This document shows, in pieces, positions 5,015 through 57,080 of a stretch of 64,000 nucleotides of DNA (the stretch's first letter is position 1; the number at the start of each line of letters is the position of its first letter). The stretch covers positions 162,216 through 226,215 of the forward strand of contig JAFTXN010000006.1 in assembly GCA_017461605.1 (NCBI GenBank), written 5' to 3'. Position numbers and translations under genes: made by a program. Under the pieces are notes generated by a model. The model was not told the DNA's origin. It saw only the letters and a list, made by a program, of their open reading frames with translations, and searched no databases. This stretch comes from Bacteroidaceae bacterium. GTDB lineage: Bacteria; Bacteroidota; Bacteroidia; Bacteroidales; Bacteroidaceae.

Positions 5015-5100
5015 GTGTAAAATCCTGCAAGGCGTTCTGAAAATTCTGCAGTGCTTGCAGAAAATCGAGAACGCCTTGCAGAAAGTTGCGCTTCCGCAAT
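5015..5100 (+). repeat. 22-bp-period palindromic array A
   Basis: Units begin at 5015, 5037, 5059 and 5080 (22, 22, 21 bases and a partial). They carry AT-rich palindromic cores such as GAAAATTC joined by linkers like TGCAAGGCGTT and TGCAGTGCTT. The first unit closely matches the first unit of array B at 26368. It lies in the 526-bp gap 4849-5374 between the bcp terminator and the ftsK promoter; I see no gene in that gap. Confidence 0.65.
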
Positions 5101-13640: not shown

Positions 13641-13797
13641 AAAAGGTTTCTAATCAGAATTCTGCGCAAATACGGGCCTTTCGACAAGAATCACCAAGCG
13701 TTCGGCACACCGTAAAGCGGATTTCGGAAGAAACAACAAGCACCGGGTCATGCCACGAAAGGCACTGCAAGGGGCAGCGAAACGCCTTCCGGATTTA

Positions 13798-13884
13798 TTA
13801 TCATTAGGGTGATACGTTCTTATCACCATAATGATACGTTCTTATCACTATAATGATAATTTCTTATCACCCTAATGATAATTC
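13798..13884 (+). repeat. 22-bp-period palindromic array E
   Basis: Four tandem units start at 13798, 13820, 13842 and 13864 (22, 22, 22, 21 bases). Each has the form TTATCAnnnTAATGATAA-type palindrome plus a linker ending CGTTC, ATTTC or ATTC. It sits in the 812-bp gap 13457-14268. The gap also holds the terminator, the tRNA fragment, a GC-rich hairpin (GCTCCCC with GGGGAGC at about 13980-14003) and the promoter cassettes; I find no gene in it. Confidence 0.8.
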
Positions 13885-14045
13885 AACGAGAATGCTCGTC
13901 GGAAGTGGTTTTGGTGCTTGCAAAAAGGGGCGTAAAGGGGTGTAGAGGATTAAAGACTCATACCCCTCACCGCTTCGCGGAGCTCCCCGGCCTCAGGGGA
14001 GCAGCACCGTCCGGACTGTCCGCGGGCTGAAATGTTGGATTTTTA

Positions 14046-14237
14046 CTCGCCTTGCACCCTTTTGCTTACGCCAAAGTAGGCGGCGGCTCGGCAAGAAAAA
14101 CAAAAAACTCTGCATTTTGTTTTGTACTGCGCTCGCCTTGCACCCTTTTGCTTACGCCAAAGTAGGCGGCGGCTCGGCAAGAAAAACAAAAAACTCTGCA
14201 TTTTGTTTTGTCCTGCGCTCGCCTTGCACTACTTTTG
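14046..14237 (+). repeat. Tandem 86-bp promoter cassettes upstream of the ThiE-like gene
   Basis: The segment beginning CTCGCCTTGCAC recurs at 14046, 14132 and 14218, an exact 86-bp period; two full copies and the start of a third. Copies differ by one or two bases. In the first two the position of the -7 box reads CCTTTTG; the third continues into a perfect TACTTTTG. A related 85-bp cassette lies at 36682-36874. Confidence 0.85.
14207..14237 (+). promoter_or_regulatory. Promoter of the ThiE-like gene and prs
   Basis: TTTG at 14207-14210, 19 bases, TACTTTTG at 14230-14237: full consensus. The -33 box and spacer are supplied by the end of the second cassette and the start of the third. Confidence 0.75.
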
Positions 14238-14268
14238 CAAAGAAATCTTAACATAGCAGTTTAGACGC

Positions 14269-26337: not shown

Positions 26338-26367
26338 TGGCAGTGCTCCCGATAACGGCATGCGCAT

Positions 26368-26433
26368 GCAGAAAAATCTGCAAGGCGTTCTGAAATTTCT
26401 ACAAGGCGTTTAGAAAATTCTGCAGTGCTTCCG
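26368..26433 (+). repeat. 22-bp-period palindromic array B
   Basis: Three exact 22-base units start at 26368, 26390 and 26412. Each has an AT-rich palindromic core (AGAAAAATCT, GAAATTTC, AGAAAATTCT) and a linker (GCAAGGCGTT, ACAAGGCGTTT, GCAGTGCTTCCG). It shares units with array A at 5015 and the end of array D at 57056. It sits in the 482-bp gap 26338-26819, the rest of which is the carAB leader. Confidence 0.75.
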
Positions 26434-26529
26434 GATTTTTGGTACATGCCGACAGCGATTTGCTTCGACAGCGAAAAAAAAGGAAAAAACTTTTTTTGAC
26501 ACACTCCGTTCATTATCTAAAAAAATCTA

Positions 26530-36644: not shown

Positions 36645-36678
36645 ATGGAGAGGCTTCACTTGGGCCTCTCCATTTTTG
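36645..36678 (+). terminator. Terminator after the C1A-like peptidase gene
   Basis: ATGGAGAGGC pairs perfectly with GCCTCTCCAT, 9-base loop, followed by TTTTTG. Confidence 0.85.
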
Positions 36679-36681
36679 TTT

Positions 36682-36874
36682 CCACTCGTCTTGCACACTT
36701 TCGCTGACGCGCAAGATAGGCGGCGGCTCGGAAATAAAAGAAAAAACTGCGGGCTTTCTTTGTATTCCACTCGCCTTGCACACTTTCGCTGACGCGCAAG
36801 ATAGGCTGCGGCTCGGAAATAAAAGAAAAAACTGCGGGCTTTCTTTGTATTCCACTCGCCTTGCACTATCTTTG
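36682..36874 (+). repeat. Tandem 85-bp promoter cassettes upstream of glnA
   Basis: The segment starting CCACTCG(C/T)CTTGCAC recurs at 36682, 36767 and 36852, an exact 85-bp period; two full copies differ by only a couple of bases and the third begins. It shares the CTCGCCTTGCAC start, an ACGC...AAG...TAGGCGGCGGCTCGG core and an AAAAAACT tail with the 86-bp cassette at 14046. With the terminator it fills the 306-bp gap 36611-36916. Confidence 0.85.
36844..36874 (+). promoter_or_regulatory. Promoter of glnA
   Basis: TTTG at 36844-36847, 19 bases, TATCTTTG at 36867-36874: full consensus, formed by the end of cassette 2 and start of cassette 3. In the earlier copies the -7 position reads ACTTTCGC. 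Confidence 0.78.
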
Positions 36875-36916
36875 TCGAGAGAGAGCATGTAATTCTAAAC
36901 CCTATAAAACCATATC

Positions 36917-39430: not shown

Positions 39431-41200
39431 ATGTACAGAAGCAAAAACTGCGGCGAACTCCGCATTGCCAACGTAGGCGAAACCGTAACGCTGGCCGGAT
39501 GGGTACAGCGCAGTCGCAAGATGGGCGGCATGACATTTGTCGACCTGCGCGACCGCTATGGTATCACGCAATTGGTGTTCAACGAAGAAACAGATGCCGA
39601 ACTATGTGCGCAAGCCAACAAGTTGGGACGCGAATATGTGATTCAAGTTGTGGGAAGCGTGAACGAACGCTATGCCAAGAACGACAAGATGCCCACCGGC
39701 GACATCGAAATCATAGTGAACGAACTGCGCGTGCTCAATGCCAGCGAGGTGCCTCCTTTCACCATCGAAGAGAACACCGATGGCGGTGACGACCTTCGCA
39801 TGAAGTATCGTTACCTCGACTTGCGCCGCTCCAATGTTCGCGCCAACCTGGAACTGCGTCACAAGTTCTGCTTGGCCGTGCGCCATTTCCTCGACAGCAA
39901 AGGCTTTATCGAAGTGGAAACTCCCGTATTGGTAGGCAGCACTCCCGAAGGAGCACGCGACTTCATCGTGCCCTCACGCATGAATCCCGGACAGTTCTAC
40001 GCCCTGCCCCAAAGTCCGCAAACGCTGAAACAATTGCTCATGGTGGCCGGCATGGACCGCTACTTCCAGATTGTGAAATGCTTCCGCGATGAAGACCTTC
40101 GTGCCGACCGTCAGCCCGAATTCACACAGATCGACTGCGAGATGAGTTTCGTCAACCAAGACGACATCATCAGCGTCTTCGAAGAAATGACCAAGCACCT
40201 CTTCAAGGAGGTGCGCGGTGTGGACCTCGGCGAAGCCCCCTTCCTCCGTTTGCCCTGGAGCGAAGCCATGCGCCGCTTCGGTTCCGACAAACCCGATATG
40301 CGCTTCGGCATGGAGTTTGTCGAACTGATGGACGTGCTCAAAGGCACCGGCGAATTCGGAGTGTTCAACGATGCAGCCTACATCGGTGGTATCTGCGCCG
40401 AAGGTTGTGCCGTCTACACCCGTAAGCAACTCGACGAACTTACCAACTTCGTGAAGAGCCAGCAGATTGGTGCCAAAGGCATGGTATATGCCCGTGTGCA
40501 AGAAGACGGCAGCGTGAAGAGCAGCGTAGATAAGTTCTACAGCCCCGAAGTGCTCAGCCGCTTGGGCGAAGCCATGAACGCCAAGCCCGGTGATCTCATC
40601 CTCATCCTCAGTGGCGACGATGCCATGAAGACACGCCGTCAGCTCTGCGAGCTGCGCCTCGAGATGGGCAACCGCCTCGGTCTGCGCGACAAGAACAAGT
40701 TTGCCCTGCTTTGGGTGGTCGACTTCCCCATGTTCGAATGGAGCGAAGAAGACGGACGCTTCATGGCCATGCACCACCCCTTCACCTCTCCCAAGCCCTC
40801 TGACGTCGCCAAGCTCGACACCGATCCCGGCAGCGTATTGGCCGATGCCTACGACATGGTTTGCAACGGAGTGGAAGTGGGCGGAGGCAGCATCCGCATA
40901 CATGATGCAGAACTCCAAGCAAAGATATTTAAGGCACTGGGATTCACGCCCGAAAAGGCGCAAGAACAATTCGGCTTCCTCATGAATGCCTTCAAATATG
41001 GCGCGCCCCCTCACGGCGGTTTGGCCTATGGTCTCGACCGCTGGGTAAGCCTCTTTGCCGGTCTCGACAGCATCCGCGACTGCATCGCCTTCCCCAAGAA
41101 CAACTCCGGACGCGATGTGATGCTTGATGCCCCCTCGTTTGTGGACCAGGCACAACTTGACGAACTACAGTTGGCGCTCAACCCCGCAGAAAAGCAATAA
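39431..41200 (+). CDS. aspS: Aspartate--tRNA ligase
   Basis: 589 residues, the bacterial-type AspRS that charges tRNA-Asp. An N-terminal OB fold ([21 protein letters not shown]), class II motif 2 [18 protein letters not shown], the GAD insertion typical of bacterial enzymes, and motif 3 [13 protein letters not shown] near the C-terminus are all present, as is [13 protein letters not shown]. The start [11 protein letters not shown] fits the family. A terminator follows. Whether it discriminates tRNA-Asn cannot be read from sequence here. Confidence 0.97.
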
Positions 41201-41227
41201 GCCAAACACACATACCTATTTCTTCAT

Positions 41228-41258
41228 CCCAAGAGCAACCCCGGCTCTTGGGATTTTT
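41228..41258 (+). terminator. Terminator after aspS
   Basis: CCCAAGAGC pairs with GCTCTTGGG, 7-base loop, followed by ATTTTTG. Confidence 0.85.
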
Positions 41259-41296: not shown

Positions 41297-41417
41297 TATC
41301 AAAAATTTTCTCACGCCTTGACACTGCAGTATCATGTGCTTGATACTGCAGTGTCAAGCGCATGAGACAAAAATATCAAGCGCTTGAGACACAAAAGTCA
41401 TGCGCTTGAAACAATTC
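41297..41417 (+). repeat. 22-bp-period palindromic array C
   Basis: Four exact 22-base units start at 41319, 41341, 41363 and 41385, each beginning TGA and ending GCGCT, GCGCA or GTGCT, with a weaker unit before and a partial one after. Units one and two form a perfect 18-bp inverted repeat (41317-41334 with 41341-41358, core CACTGCAGTATC). It sits in the 499-bp gap 41201-41699, whose remaining parts are the aspS terminator and the GH89 promoter. Confidence 0.8.
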
Positions 41418-41594: not shown

Positions 41595-41602
41595 TATCTT
41601 TG
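41595..41602 (+). promoter_or_regulatory. -7 box of the GH89 gene promoter
   Basis: TATCTTTG matches the consensus; no clear TTTG lies 19 bases upstream. The leader would be about 90 bases. Its position rules out the in-frame ATG at 41586 as the start. Confidence 0.45.
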
Positions 41603-41699: not shown

Positions 41700-44600
41700 A
41701 TGAGAAAAAAATTAGCAATGCTAATGGTATCGTTCCTTGCATGTATTGGGACGATGATGGCTACTGCTACTGATTTGCCTGTGGTATCAACTGAAGGCAA
41801 TATCACTTGGTACACCATCAAGAATGTGCGTGGTAATGTGTACGCCGCATTCACCGGTAGTGGTGCGCAGATGAAGCTCAACTCAACCATTGAGGATGAG
41901 TCCTATCTGTTCTATTTTACCGCAGGTGAAAATGGTGGATACAAAATCCACAATGCAGCAACAAGCAACTTGTGCGCAGGTCACAGTTCTTGGACTGCTG
42001 CTGGAACAGAATGGTACTTGAGAGCGAACTCAAATGCCAATTATCCTGGAATATCCATTTCCAACACATCAACCTACGAAGGAAATTCTTGTTGGAATGA
42101 TGCTGGTAATAGTCACACATTGGTGGCCTATTGGACTGCAAATGATGATGGTTCTGCATGGGTTATCGAAAATTATACAGGAGATGTAGCTGCACTGAAG
42201 GCATCTAAGCTACAGATGTCAACTAACGAAGATAAGCACTTCTACTACATCAAAAATCGTCGCAGGAATGGTAAGTTTGCGAACTTTGTTGGTCAAGGCA
42301 CACGCTTTACTCAGATTTCAGAAGCCACAGCCGGCTCATACTGGTATTTCGTAGATGCTACGAATGAGCTTCCTGCCGGCACTCAAATCCCCGAAGGATG
42401 TGCTGTTTGCCGTATCTACAATGCGGGAAGCGCTCTGGGTGTGGAGAACACTAACGGTAACATGGTTGCTGCAAACGCCGGGGCCAAGATTTATTTCATC
42501 AGAAAGCACGATAGCACGTATTGGGGAGATGTCATCTATCCGTACAATGAAGCAGGTGCCGGGTGGAATGATTTAGATGGTACCGAGGTTACTAACTACA
42601 ATTATAATGACGCAGGTTCTATTTGGTCGATTGTAGCTGCAGGTAAGACTGAGGATGACTTGAAGAATGAAGCTGCCGCAGCAAAGACGAGTGCAATGAC
42701 ACTTATCACAACTGCTGAAGGTGCTGCAGAGGCCAGCTATTATAATTTCCCCGATGATGCTATTGCTACAGCCAAGGCTGCAGTTAAGGATTTGGACGTA
42801 ACGACAGATTTGGTTTCTGCTGTGTCAAGTCATATCGCTATCAATGCAGCTGTGAGCACTTTGAAAGCGACTAAGACCGCGGGACCTGCTGTTGGCGACT
42901 ATATCCGCTTCAAGAACAGAGCGAAGGGGGTATATATGGCTGCAACCGTTGATGATAATGACATGATTCGTAAGTCTAATGATAAAACAGACTTGAACAC
43001 GCTTTGGTTGGTTGAAGCTGGCGACAACGGTAGTGTAAAACTAAAGAATGTGGCAACTCAGAAGTACATTGGTGCGATCTCCGAAAGTGCTGATGTAAAA
43101 CAAAAGGAAAGTGCAGAAGCATCACAATTCACTTTTGTCAATGTTGCTGACGTTTATGGCACATTCCAGACTACAGGTGGTGGCGATTATGCTTATGCCA
43201 ACTTGAACGAATGGGGTGGTGTATATAAAGTTGTTGGTTGGGAAAAGAATGACCAAGCGTCTCAATGGTTAATATGTGAAGCATATCCCCTTACCATAAT
43301 ATATCAATTCGAAGATGCAGAAGTTGAAGAACTTAGAATTGAGACTTATGTAGATGCGGGGGCTGTTTATACCATACAAAACAGAGCGGAACATGATGGT
43401 AAATTCATCGTTTCATGTAAGATAGGAGAAAATTCTGTAGAGAAAGTTGATGGCACTTGGCCTGTATCTGTGAATGCAGCAACTACGGTAACTGTTACAC
43501 TTAAAGACCCAACACTCACAGGTAATGGTTCTATGGGAGTAGTTGACGTGGCTAATTACCACCAAGAGGGATTGGCTGAGATTCCCGCAGGAACCGGTTG
43601 GACCATTTCTCTGGATGTGGAGAATCCCAACGGGGCATCTTTTAACCAATATGGAACAAGCATCTTCGCTATCGGAACAGATGCTTTCCCTGAAAAGAAT
43701 GGTTACAAAGGATTGCAATTTTATTTGCAGAGTGCTGCCAATGGTGGCAAACTGGATGCCGTGTTTGACGGAGGAGACCACTTGATTAATAACGTTACTT
43801 ATACCGGCAACTTCAGCGCATCCATTTCATATAATGGTGGCAAGCAGTTGCAGATTAAGACAACCAATGCCTCGGGCACCGTTGCTGTCAACGATTACAC
43901 GCTCAACAATGCCCTTGGAGCGTTCTCGCAGATGGCATATGGTTTGCCCACGGGTATCAACGTGAAGAATTTGCAGATTGCACCACTTAGTAATACTGTT
44001 GATTATCCTACGGCAGGAACAGTAACTAACAGCAAGTACACCTTTACTTCTAACAACATTCTGTATGCAGGTACTTGCAACAAAATTCGCTTCACCTTAA
44101 CAGAATCTGGAGCATTCTACAAAGATGGTGCAAAGCGCCTGAGTTTTGATTCATTCACGCTGTATGATGCGAATGGCAATGAAGTGGAGCTTAAGGAAAG
44201 CTATTTCAGCGGTAACAACAATAAGTCTTATGCTGGTCTGCTTGATGGTATTAATGCTGGAACTGATGGAGCAGGTTGTTGCTGTGGCACATGGGCTTCC
44301 GGTACCGAAGACGACTATTTTGAAATACTTTTACCCGCCAGCATAGACCTTGGCGGTGCATTCTCGTTCTCATTCGTTACTGAAAACACCACGATGAATG
44401 CAAAAGCGTTCAGAATTGAAACTTCATACGAAAAAGCAGCTGACTACACATTCAGCATCACCGGTAATGGAGAGAACGAAGTAACCGTAACTCACAAAGG
44501 AGAGGCACTTACCGATGGTTCGACCATTGCTGTTGCAGAGTTTGATGCCGACCTTGTTTCAGCCACAGAAATTCCCGGCTACACTTGGAGTATCGTAGTC

Positions 44601-56945: not shown

Positions 56946-57080
56946 CTTACGACAGCATCGAGAATGCTTCTCGCTGCAGTATCACGGCTTGACACTGCAG
57001 TATCTTCGGCATGACACTGCAGTATCTCCGGCATGACACTGCAGTATCATCGGCTTGACACAAATCTGCAGTGCTTCCGG
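56946..57080 (+). repeat. 22-bp-period palindromic array D
   Basis: Units of 22 bases start at 56968, 56990, 57012 and 57034; three read TGACACTGCAGTATC followed by TTCGGCA, TCCGGCA or ATCGGCT. The next unit (57056) changes to the ATCTGCAGTGCTTCCGG sequence found in array B. The core CACTGCAGTATC is that of array C. It occupies most of the 484-bp gap 56787-57270 between two divergent promoters. Confidence 0.8.

What the first reader, a model, noticed from the sequence alone, without database searches (positions are those of the whole stretch)
41297..41417. Array C: 22-bp units with perfect 18-bp inverted repeat; part of a wider family
Four consecutive units are exactly 22 bases, each 'TGA + core + linker GCGC(T/A)'. 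The cores differ (CACTGCAGTATC, TACTGCAGTGTC, GACAAAAATATC, GACACAAAAGTC) yet the period and linker hold. The same 22-bp spacing appears in four other gaps (5015, 13798, 26368, 56968). Two helical turns put every palindrome on one DNA face, which suggests a protein-binding ladder or a structured RNA/DNA element with exchangeable cores.
Basis: seen in the sequence. Interest (0 to 1): 0.75.

Follow-up and report, generated by a model that had tools for sequence, protein, structure and literature searches.

The report
Two-turn DNA ladder between genes
This gut bacterium and some of its relatives carry many short ladders of mirror-like DNA words, spaced two turns of the double helix apart, in the stretches between genes; the spacing recurs while the words differ between species, which suggests a scaffold for a DNA-binding protein that remains to be found.

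Summary
Array C (41297-41417) is real. It is one of an estimated 200 "ladders" in this 2-Mb draft Bacteroidaceae genome: intergenic arrays of alternating imperfect palindromes repeating every 21 or 22 bp. In 834 kb, lag 21 gives 42 arrays and lag 22 gives 7; other lags from 10 to 60 give at most 3, apart from the multiples 42 and 44. Several word families share one genome, and other words with the same pitch occur in relatives. The main family is a 67-bp element of three 13-bp modules joined by 8-bp A/T tracts. Of 31 mapped copies, 30 lie at the same place in the sister species, but 13 of 43 mapped copies of the sister are missing here. Shared copies diverge less than flanks or fourfold sites. 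G·T and A·C mismatches are equally frequent, against an RNA role. Copies sit upstream of promoters. No target duplication, RAYT tie or Rfam match was found. Best reading: helically phased double-stranded binding platforms for an unidentified protein; a domesticated or selfish inverted repeat is a close rival. Nearest published relative: the P. gingivalis BrickBuilt 23-nt minisatellite. Protein and function are not shown.

The parts
41297..41417 (.). Array C (the finding): family-1 ladder; cores TGACACTGCAGTATCA 41319-41334, TGATACTGCAGTGTCA 41341-41356, TGAGACAAAAATATCA 41363-41378, TGAGACACAAAAGTCA 41385-41400; 22-bp pitch; left end ATTTTCTCACGCC
41317..41358 (.). perfect 18-bp inverted repeat made by units 1 and 2, 6 nt between the arms
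41226..41254 (+). terminator-like hairpin after aspS and before array C
   Evidence: aspS by Pfam
41595..41602 (+). TATCTTTG, a Bacteroidetes -7-like promoter motif (consensus TAnnTTTG recalled) downstream of array C and upstream of the next gene
   Evidence: read; family-2-wide test
39431..41200 (+). aspartyl-tRNA synthetase gene upstream of array C
5019..5084 (.). Array A: family-2-like words (CTGCAAGGCGTT..GAAAATT..), pitch 21, upstream of the ftsK-like gene
13788..13893 (.). Array B: family-5 words TGATACGTTCTTATCACCATAA, pitch 22
26360..26437 (.). Array D: family-2 element, pitch 21, upstream of carA; a family-2 array with other modules lies at the orthologous place in G019
56974..57073 (.). 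Array E: family-1 ladder, pitch 22, ending in a family-2 word; present at the orthologous place in G019 with one more unit

Best explanation
The ladders are double-stranded DNA binding platforms. Each unit is a dyad (a palindromic word of 13-14 bp plus an 8-bp spacer). The 21/22-bp pitch places successive dyads on one face of the helix, so that a dimeric DNA-binding or nucleoid-architectural protein could assemble cooperatively along them. They sit after the upstream gene and upstream of promoters, at about one per 7-10 kb, as boundary-like sites rather than operators of particular genes. Shared copies are kept close to the family lexicon, while the words at one locus change or turn round between species; each lineage has its own words (presumably with its own protein specificity), but the pitch recurs. 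Shown here: pitch, module grammar, position, above-neutral identity of shared copies, absence of an RNA signature. Inferred: the protein, cooperative binding, the boundary role, selection on each copy, and how words change (inversion by template switching is possible but was not above chance).
For: Pitch: lag 21/22 excess in G000, G019 and G012 at 21, 22 and their multiples; TRF periods 20-23 in 62 of 78, 74 of 82 and 24 of 39 arrays. Same pitch with unrelated words in other congeners (G047, G052, G008, G039 at 22; G057, G010 at 21) and in other Bacteroidales. DNA not RNA: G·T 40 against A·C 41 and 51 against 58; on the gene strand 20 against 22 and 23 against 27. Dyads: compensating changes in unit arms, with 91.6% and 100% paired cells against 82.3% and 81.1% shuffled. 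Conservation: 30 of 31 mapped family-2 copies of G000 have a family-2 array at the orthologous place; identity of these shared elements 80% against 55% for flanks (42% shuffled baseline) and 65.6% at fourfold sites; word types agree at 17 of 23 loci against 7.9 expected; 9 of 23 pairs differ at no more than 4 of 39 module bases against 2.5 in shuffled pairs, reached in 0 of 2000 shuffles. Position: promoter motif between element and start codon in 51 of 64 and 57 of 74, against 2 and 5 in reversed sequence, 7 and 10 for the reverse-complement motif, and 2 and 1 on the far side; gene-orientation context like the background. Spacing somewhat more even than random gaps (p 0.06 and 0.002).
Against: No protein was found and no binding was tested. 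HU-HIG proteins occur in all 58 congeners searched, so they do not track the ladders. In the reverse direction 13 of 43 mapped family-2 copies of G019 (12 intervals) have no such array in G000, and only 2 of these intervals hold leftover words, so copies are gained or cleanly lost; identity measured on shared, recognisable copies is therefore biased upward. Array C itself is absent from the orthologous gap in G019. Module inversion is not above chance (3 of 23 clear cases against 1.75 shuffled, p 0.26). Some congener arrays with the same pitch are direct repeats without an obvious dyad (G008, G039). In the 20-genome survey lag 18 also rises (8 clusters against 11 at lag 22 and 4 at lag 21, two artefacts included in each). 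G004, G015 and G018 gave no 21/22 cluster in their first stretches. The genomes are drafts and the gene calls are my own.
Confidence: 0.43

Rival explanations
1. Selfish or domesticated miniature inverted repeats (MITE- or REPIN-like): the elements spread in the ancestor of the G000/G019 pair with the help of a transposase, landed where insertion does no harm, and some still come and go. (Raised from 0.30 to 0.37 after the reverse mapping.)
For: Family-2 words are found at 187 places in G000 and 227 in G019, against 1 in the other 56 congeners, which looks like a burst. 13 of 43 mapped G019 copies are missing in G000, mostly without leftover words. The outer modules are inverted. Location between transcription units fits safe havens.
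Against: No clear target-site duplication in 100 elements. 4 of 8 ladder-bearing genomes searched have no Y1/RAYT transposase; in G000 and G019 the single Y1 gene is kilobases from the nearest ladder seen, and the one Y1 gene near a ladder (G153) has its own hairpins. GTAG/CGTC tags are not enriched at the ends. Shared copies are less diverged than neutral sites and keep locus-specific word types. The shared pitch of unrelated families is unexplained.
Confidence: 0.37
2. Mutational by-product: replication slippage and quasi-palindrome correction make tandem palindromes with a preferred unit length, with no function.
For: At single loci modules differ by exact reversal (for example L139:4155 against L189, L234:15947 against L230), and homogenised arms fit template switching at short inverted repeats; overall, inversions are not above chance.
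Against: Does not explain dispersal of one lexicon over many loci, a fixed three-module architecture (44 and 57 elements with three, the other 18 and 12 with two, none longer), identity above neutral or positioning relative to promoters.
Confidence: 0.1
3. Operators of ordinary transcription factors controlling the adjacent genes.
For: Core TGAYAC-N4-GTRTCA looks like a repressor operator; four viral contigs carry a twin palindrome of the same form.
Against: About one ladder per 7-10 kb, in all gene orientations including convergent gaps, at widely varying distance from the promoter motif (43 to 578 bp), beside unrelated genes (aspS, ftsK-like, carA, thiE-like).
Confidence: 0.06
4. RNA structure: bidirectional terminators or processed hairpin RNAs.
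For: Family-2 elements are long inverted repeats flanked by A and T runs.
Against: No G·U preference and no gene-strand bias. Elements occur in divergent gaps (17 of 58 and 18 of 68) upstream of promoters. Array C follows a separate terminator-like hairpin. No Rfam match at the window's ladders at gathering threshold.
Confidence: 0.04

Closest known systems
BrickBuilt minisatellite/MITE of Porphyromonas gingivalis (PMC4596501; abstract and sections 5, 7 part 1, 8 and 9 read)
   Same: Same order (Bacteroidales); intergenic; about two-turn tandem unit (23 nt; the paper also cites 22-, 23- and 41-nt repeats in strain W83); predicted stem-loops; Rho-independent terminators near 10 of 19; unit number varies between strains.
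   Different: 19 copies against an estimated 200; up to 22.8 direct copies with leader and tail segments; IS5-like 12-bp terminal repeats and target duplications at some copies. The ladders here show no such ends or duplications, have alternating dyads, a fixed three-module form in the main family, and several word families per genome.
REP/BIME and REPINs with RAYT transposases (PMC3116915 abstract and section 12 read; PMC3733652 passages read)
   Same: High-copy extragenic palindromes; inverted doublets around a spacer.
   Different: No GTAG/CGTC tag enrichment, no RAYT tie found, fixed 21/22-bp pitch, position upstream of promoters.
Small hairpin-associated inversions (recalled, from chloroplast intergenic DNA)
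   Same: Sequence between short inverted arms is seen in opposite orientation between relatives at some loci here.
   Different: Here inversions are not above chance over all loci, and the sequence is part of a genome-wide element.

Membership tests
REP/REPIN (RAYT-mobilised) | Inverted pair of palindromes around a spacer | tested here: met
   Modules 1 and 3 are reverse complements more often than shuffled (11 of 44 against 3.8; 22 of 57 against 4.6)
REP/REPIN (RAYT-mobilised) | A RAYT (Y1_Tnp) gene in the genome, usually next to a copy | tested here: not met
   No Y1_Tnp in 4 of 8 ladder genomes; in G000/G019 the gene is kilobases from a ladder; the one neighbour (G153) has its own hairpins. 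Drafts are incomplete.
REP/REPIN (RAYT-mobilised) | GTAG or CGTC tag at one end (PMC3733652) | tested here: not met
   264 family-2 ends: GTAG 7 and CGTC 1 outward, against 27 and 11 for the opposite orientation. GTAG does occur at the ends of several G012 ladders, not followed up.
BrickBuilt / IS5-type MITE | Terminal repeat like GAGACCTTTGCA | tested here: not met
   5 matches with up to 2 mismatches in the window against 6.1 by chance, none inside the five arrays A-E
BrickBuilt / IS5-type MITE | Target-site duplication | tested here: not met
   No clear excess in 100 family-2 elements over offsets 0-13 and lengths 2-9; the best are dinucleotides, 16 against 7.4
BrickBuilt / IS5-type MITE | Tandem unit of about two helical turns in intergenic DNA | tested here: met
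   Pitch 21/22 here against 23 there
Tyrosine-recombinase core sites (13-8-13 geometry, as in loxP; recalled) | Inverted arms on either side of the 8-bp spacer | tested here: not met
   Adjacent modules 1-2 and 2-3 show no inverted relation above shuffles
Intrinsic terminators / structured RNA | Pairing on the transcribed strand, G·U tolerated over A·C | tested here: not met
Nucleoid-protein binding array | A bound protein | not testable with these tools
   No occupancy data; HU-HIG distribution uninformative
CRISPR array | Identical repeats of 24-48 bp with unique spacers (length from PMC3733652 passage) | tested here: not met
   Unit is 21/22 bp, and words and linkers both come from small shared lexicons; cas genes were not searched

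The most novel reading that the evidence does not exclude
The pitch itself is the inherited trait: in many Bacteroidales an unknown, fast-diverging architectural protein reads 21/22-bp ladders and divides the chromosome into domains of about 7-10 kb bounded by untranscribed gaps. Each lineage rewrites the words while the two-turn ruler stays.
Probability: 0.18. Interest if true: 0.87.

Novelty: new variant of a known kind. Interest (0 to 1): 0.68.

Why it matters
Short interspersed palindromes are usually treated as transposase remnants or RNA hairpins. Here spacing recurs across species while sequence does not, most copies of one species are found at the same places in its sister, and they lie upstream of promoters. 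If the protein-ladder reading is right, bacterial chromosome boundaries would have a readable DNA code, with test organisms at hand: Bacteroides sp. 519 and Prevotella veroralis DSM 19559, by their record titles not metagenome bins, carry such ladders.

Tried and rejected
RAYT/REPIN: searched Y1_Tnp in 61 genomes (own included; 38 have it, with and without ladders) and in 8 ladder genomes, and read three gene neighbourhoods; no tie. A Y1 gene 0.5 kb from a ladder in G153 looked promising, but it is bounded by its own GGGGACAGG hairpin. MITE: target-duplication scan negative; gaps lacking a ladder in one of the two sister species are too diverged to give clean empty sites. RNA: G·U test negative, Rfam negative. 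Tyrosine-recombinase geometry: adjacent modules not inverted. HU-HIG as the binding protein: present in 58 of 58 congeners, and counts (4, 7 and 9 in G000, G019 and G012; up to 30 elsewhere) do not follow ladders. Viral spread: 5 viral contigs match the two-unit pattern; 4 of them share one twin palindrome, so no evidence for phage carriage. Fixed-distance activator: distance to the promoter motif is broad. Frequent module inversion, my first reading of the ortholog pairs: withdrawn as a general claim, since shuffled partners gain as much from one inversion (3.2 against 3.6 bases). Tandem-repeat period as a general bacterial bias: 200 kb of E. coli K-12 has two arrays, periods 19 and 20. Literature: nine searches listed no paper on such ladders besides BrickBuilt; passages of PMC4060949 and PMC5771137 added nothing; most subscription journals are not held. 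Weak points: home-made gene calls; family-2 detection by strict pattern; 31 of the 62 family-2 arrays of G000 and 43 of the 70 of G019 could be placed on sampled sequence of the other genome; 7 of the 30 ortholog pairs lacked three clean modules on both sides and were left out of the module counts.

Full report
What was checked. The window is G000:C3:162216-226215 of a 2.06-Mb draft genome in 10 contigs, 81% complete. Array C lies between the end of aspS (39431-41200; Pfam tRNA-synt_2, tRNA_anti-codon and GAD) and a large reading frame starting near 41700. The repeat finder gives four copies spaced 22, 22, 22 and a perfect 18-bp inverted repeat.

Genome-wide signal. In 400 kb of G000 chosen without regard to arrays, lag 21 gave 22 clusters with at least 31 of 44 matches, lag 22 gave 1, lag 42 gave 5 and each other lag from 10 to 60 gave 0 or 1. 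Over 834 kb: 42 at lag 21, 7 at lag 22, 9 at 42, 6 at 44, at most 3 elsewhere; the sister species G019 (802 kb, some stretches chosen because they hold an array or are syntenic): 42, 14, 6, 9, at most 2 elsewhere; G012 (232 kb): 10, 13, 12, 12, at most 2 elsewhere. Some lag-21 hits in G012 are probably coding repeats, since 21 is a multiple of three. TRF periods 20-23: 62 of 78, 74 of 82 and 24 of 39 arrays; in 577 kb from 27 other congeners 23 of 76. E. coli K-12, 200 kb: two arrays, periods 19 and 20. On 350 kb of G000 contig 9 there are 34 ladders, one per 10.3 kb; on 257 kb of G019 contig 9 there are 36, one per 7.1 kb. Extrapolated, that is about 200 per G000 genome.

Grammar. Family 1 (arrays C and E) has cores GAYAC-N4-GTRTC with 7- or 8-bp hearts between them; successive cores lie 21 or 22 bp apart in 13 of 14 cases in G000 (the window's own arrays not counted) and 14 of 22 in G019, the rest being 44, 23 (1) or 43-66 (7). 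Family 2 has 13-bp modules (TACAAGCACTGCA, TGCAAGCACTGCA, TGCAAGGCGTTTA and others, in either orientation) joined by 8-bp G(A/T)6C tracts; the lexicon is shared between the two species. After trimming, 44 of 62 elements in G000 and 57 of 69 in G019 have three modules, the others two. Modules 1 and 3 are exact reverse complements in 11 of 44 (3.8 shuffled) and 22 of 57 (4.6 shuffled); modules 1-2 and 2-3 show no such relation. Families 3 to 5 were read; hearts of family 3 overlap with those of family 2.

DNA or RNA. If one strand worked as RNA, mismatches in the arms should be G·T rather than A·C. They are equal: 40 and 41 in G000, 51 and 58 in G019. In tandem gaps on the gene strand they are 20 and 22, and 23 and 27. 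Mismatches within one element are not concentrated on one strand (45 of 65, expected 47.2; 58 of 89, expected 63.9). Family 1 is less clear: the two kinds of mismatch occur together in 3 of 8 arrays of G000 and 6 of 9 of G019, and in G000 one kind dominates (18 against 4), which tandem copying of one unit would also give. Rfam at gathering threshold finds only tRNA and 5S rRNA in the window.

Position. Of 62 family-2 arrays in G000, 1 lies inside a predicted gene; of 70 in G019, none does. Context (tandem, divergent, convergent) is 34, 17, 7 and 40, 18, 10, with 3 and 2 at stretch ends, against a background of gaps of at least 120 bp of 162, 63, 54 and 178, 54, 49. Between the element and the start codon of a downstream gene (flanks up to 700 bp) the motif TAnnTTTG (promoter consensus recalled) is found in 51 of 64 and 57 of 74 cases, against 2 and 5 in reversed sequence, 7 and 10 for the reverse-complement motif, and 2 and 1 in the 150 bp on the far side; distance from element to motif has medians of 141 and 160 bp and minima of 56 and 43. 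On the 3' side a terminator-like hairpin lay between stop codon and element in 23 of 104 cases by a home-made test without a control. Array C follows such a hairpin. Ladders are spaced somewhat more evenly than random gaps: CV 0.68 against 0.87 (p 0.06) and 0.54 against 0.82 (p 0.002). That null does not weight gaps by length, although gaps with ladders are longer, so this is only suggestive.

Evolution. G019 is the closest congener at aspS (91%; the next are 82-83%). Of the family-2 arrays of G000, 31 could be placed on sampled G019 sequence, and 30 of these have a family-2 array there. The reverse count is less even: of 43 placed G019 arrays, 30 have one in G000 and 13 (12 intervals) do not; 2 of these intervals hold leftover words. 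So roughly 30 of 43 places are shared, and copies appear to be either present or gone. In 23 pairs with three modules on both sides, 40 of 69 modules are the same, 11 inverted and 18 other; shuffled partners give 28.9, 11.0 and 29.1. Word types agree at 17 of 23 loci against 7.9 expected, and 9 of 23 pairs differ at no more than 4 of 39 bases against 2.5 shuffled. Exact reversals are seen at single loci, for example modules 2 and 3 of L139:4155, but clear inversion cases number 3 against 1.75 shuffled (p 0.26), so inversion as a general process is not shown. Identity of shared elements is 80% (n = 30), of non-coding flanks 55% (n = 49; 42% for shuffled flanks) and of fourfold sites 65.6% (n = 38,723). 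Because only copies recognisable in both genomes enter, 80% is an upper estimate. Orthologous elements resemble each other more than random pairs do (8.3 against 11.2 differences of 39), so homogenisation between loci alone does not explain the conservation. Family 1 is labile: array C is absent in G019, E is present with one more unit, and other cases go both ways.

Distribution. Family-2 words (up to 2 mismatches): 187 places in G000, 227 in G019, 1 in the other 56 congeners. The family-1 type pattern: G000, G019 and G012 have many matches and three other genomes of 150 have one each. A two-unit scan of 84,980 species genomes gave 50 loci, 46 of them Bacteroidales by record title and 4 not; my estimate of chance matches for random sequence is about 4. 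Eight carriers searched whole had 3 to 42 matches of a shorter pattern, control 0. The units of one Bacteroidales genome and of congener G047 show compensating changes in their arms. In 20 further congeners (337 kb in all) arrays of unrelated sequence with period 22 occur in four (G039, G047, G008, G052) and with period 21 in two (G057, G010); one has lag 20 (G013); a poly-G end and a masked run are artefacts; lag 18 gave 8 clusters, lag 22 gave 11 and lag 21 gave 4, artefacts included. Of six congeners sampled earlier, G004, G015 and G018 gave none at lags 21 and 22; G014, G016 and G040 gave 1, 2 and 1 at lag 21, of which that of G040 looks coding. Some arrays are direct repeats without a clear dyad.

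Mechanism. The best-supported reading is a two-turn binding platform in double-stranded DNA. The binding protein, cooperative assembly, selection on each copy and a boundary role are inferred. The main rival, a domesticated or selfish miniature inverted repeat, explains the burst, the safe location and the copies found in one sister only, but not the common pitch of unrelated families, the missing target duplication, the missing RAYT or the locus-specific likeness of shared copies.

Known kinds. The nearest published thing is BrickBuilt in P. gingivalis (PMC4596501: abstract and sections 5, 7 part 1, 8 and 9 read), an intergenic element with 23-nt repeats in the same order, but with IS5-like ends and target duplications that are not met here. 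REPINs (PMC3116915: abstract and section 12 read; PMC3733652: passages read) share the inverted doublet but go with a RAYT. Nine literature searches listed no description of ladders like these.

Noticed in passing
window 14046-14238 and 36675-36889: Tandem copies of an 85/86-bp unit (CTCGCCTTGCAC...GGCGGCGGCTCGG...) in two gaps; similar stretches appear in other fetched parts of this genome.
   Followed up: no
L260, L266, L110, L121 and other G012 loci: Sequence like GGGTTGTTCTAAAAATTAGG, resembling an insertion-sequence end, lies near several G012 ladders.
   Followed up: no
L085-L122 (G012 ladders of the GATAC type): Several of these ladders begin with GTAG and end with CTAC inside longer imperfect inverted flanks, reminiscent of tagged REPs, although no Y1 transposase was found in that draft.
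   Followed up: partly
L283 (G052), several arrays within 20 kb: Dense 22-bp arrays of different sequences, some with only a weak dyad; the pitch seems to be kept even without palindromes.
   Followed up: no
L180, L181, L183, L184: Viral contigs share a twin palindrome of the form TGAYACTATAGTRTCA with 22-bp spacing, probably an operator.
   Followed up: no
L299:787-1653: A 288-aa Y1-type transposase gene next to its own GGGGACAGG hairpin, about 0.5 kb from a ladder in the genome of Prevotella sp. RGIG8885.
   Followed up: yes
L123:4300-4600: TTGAAG repeats about 22 bp apart flank a GATAC ladder, inverted on the two sides.
   Followed up: no
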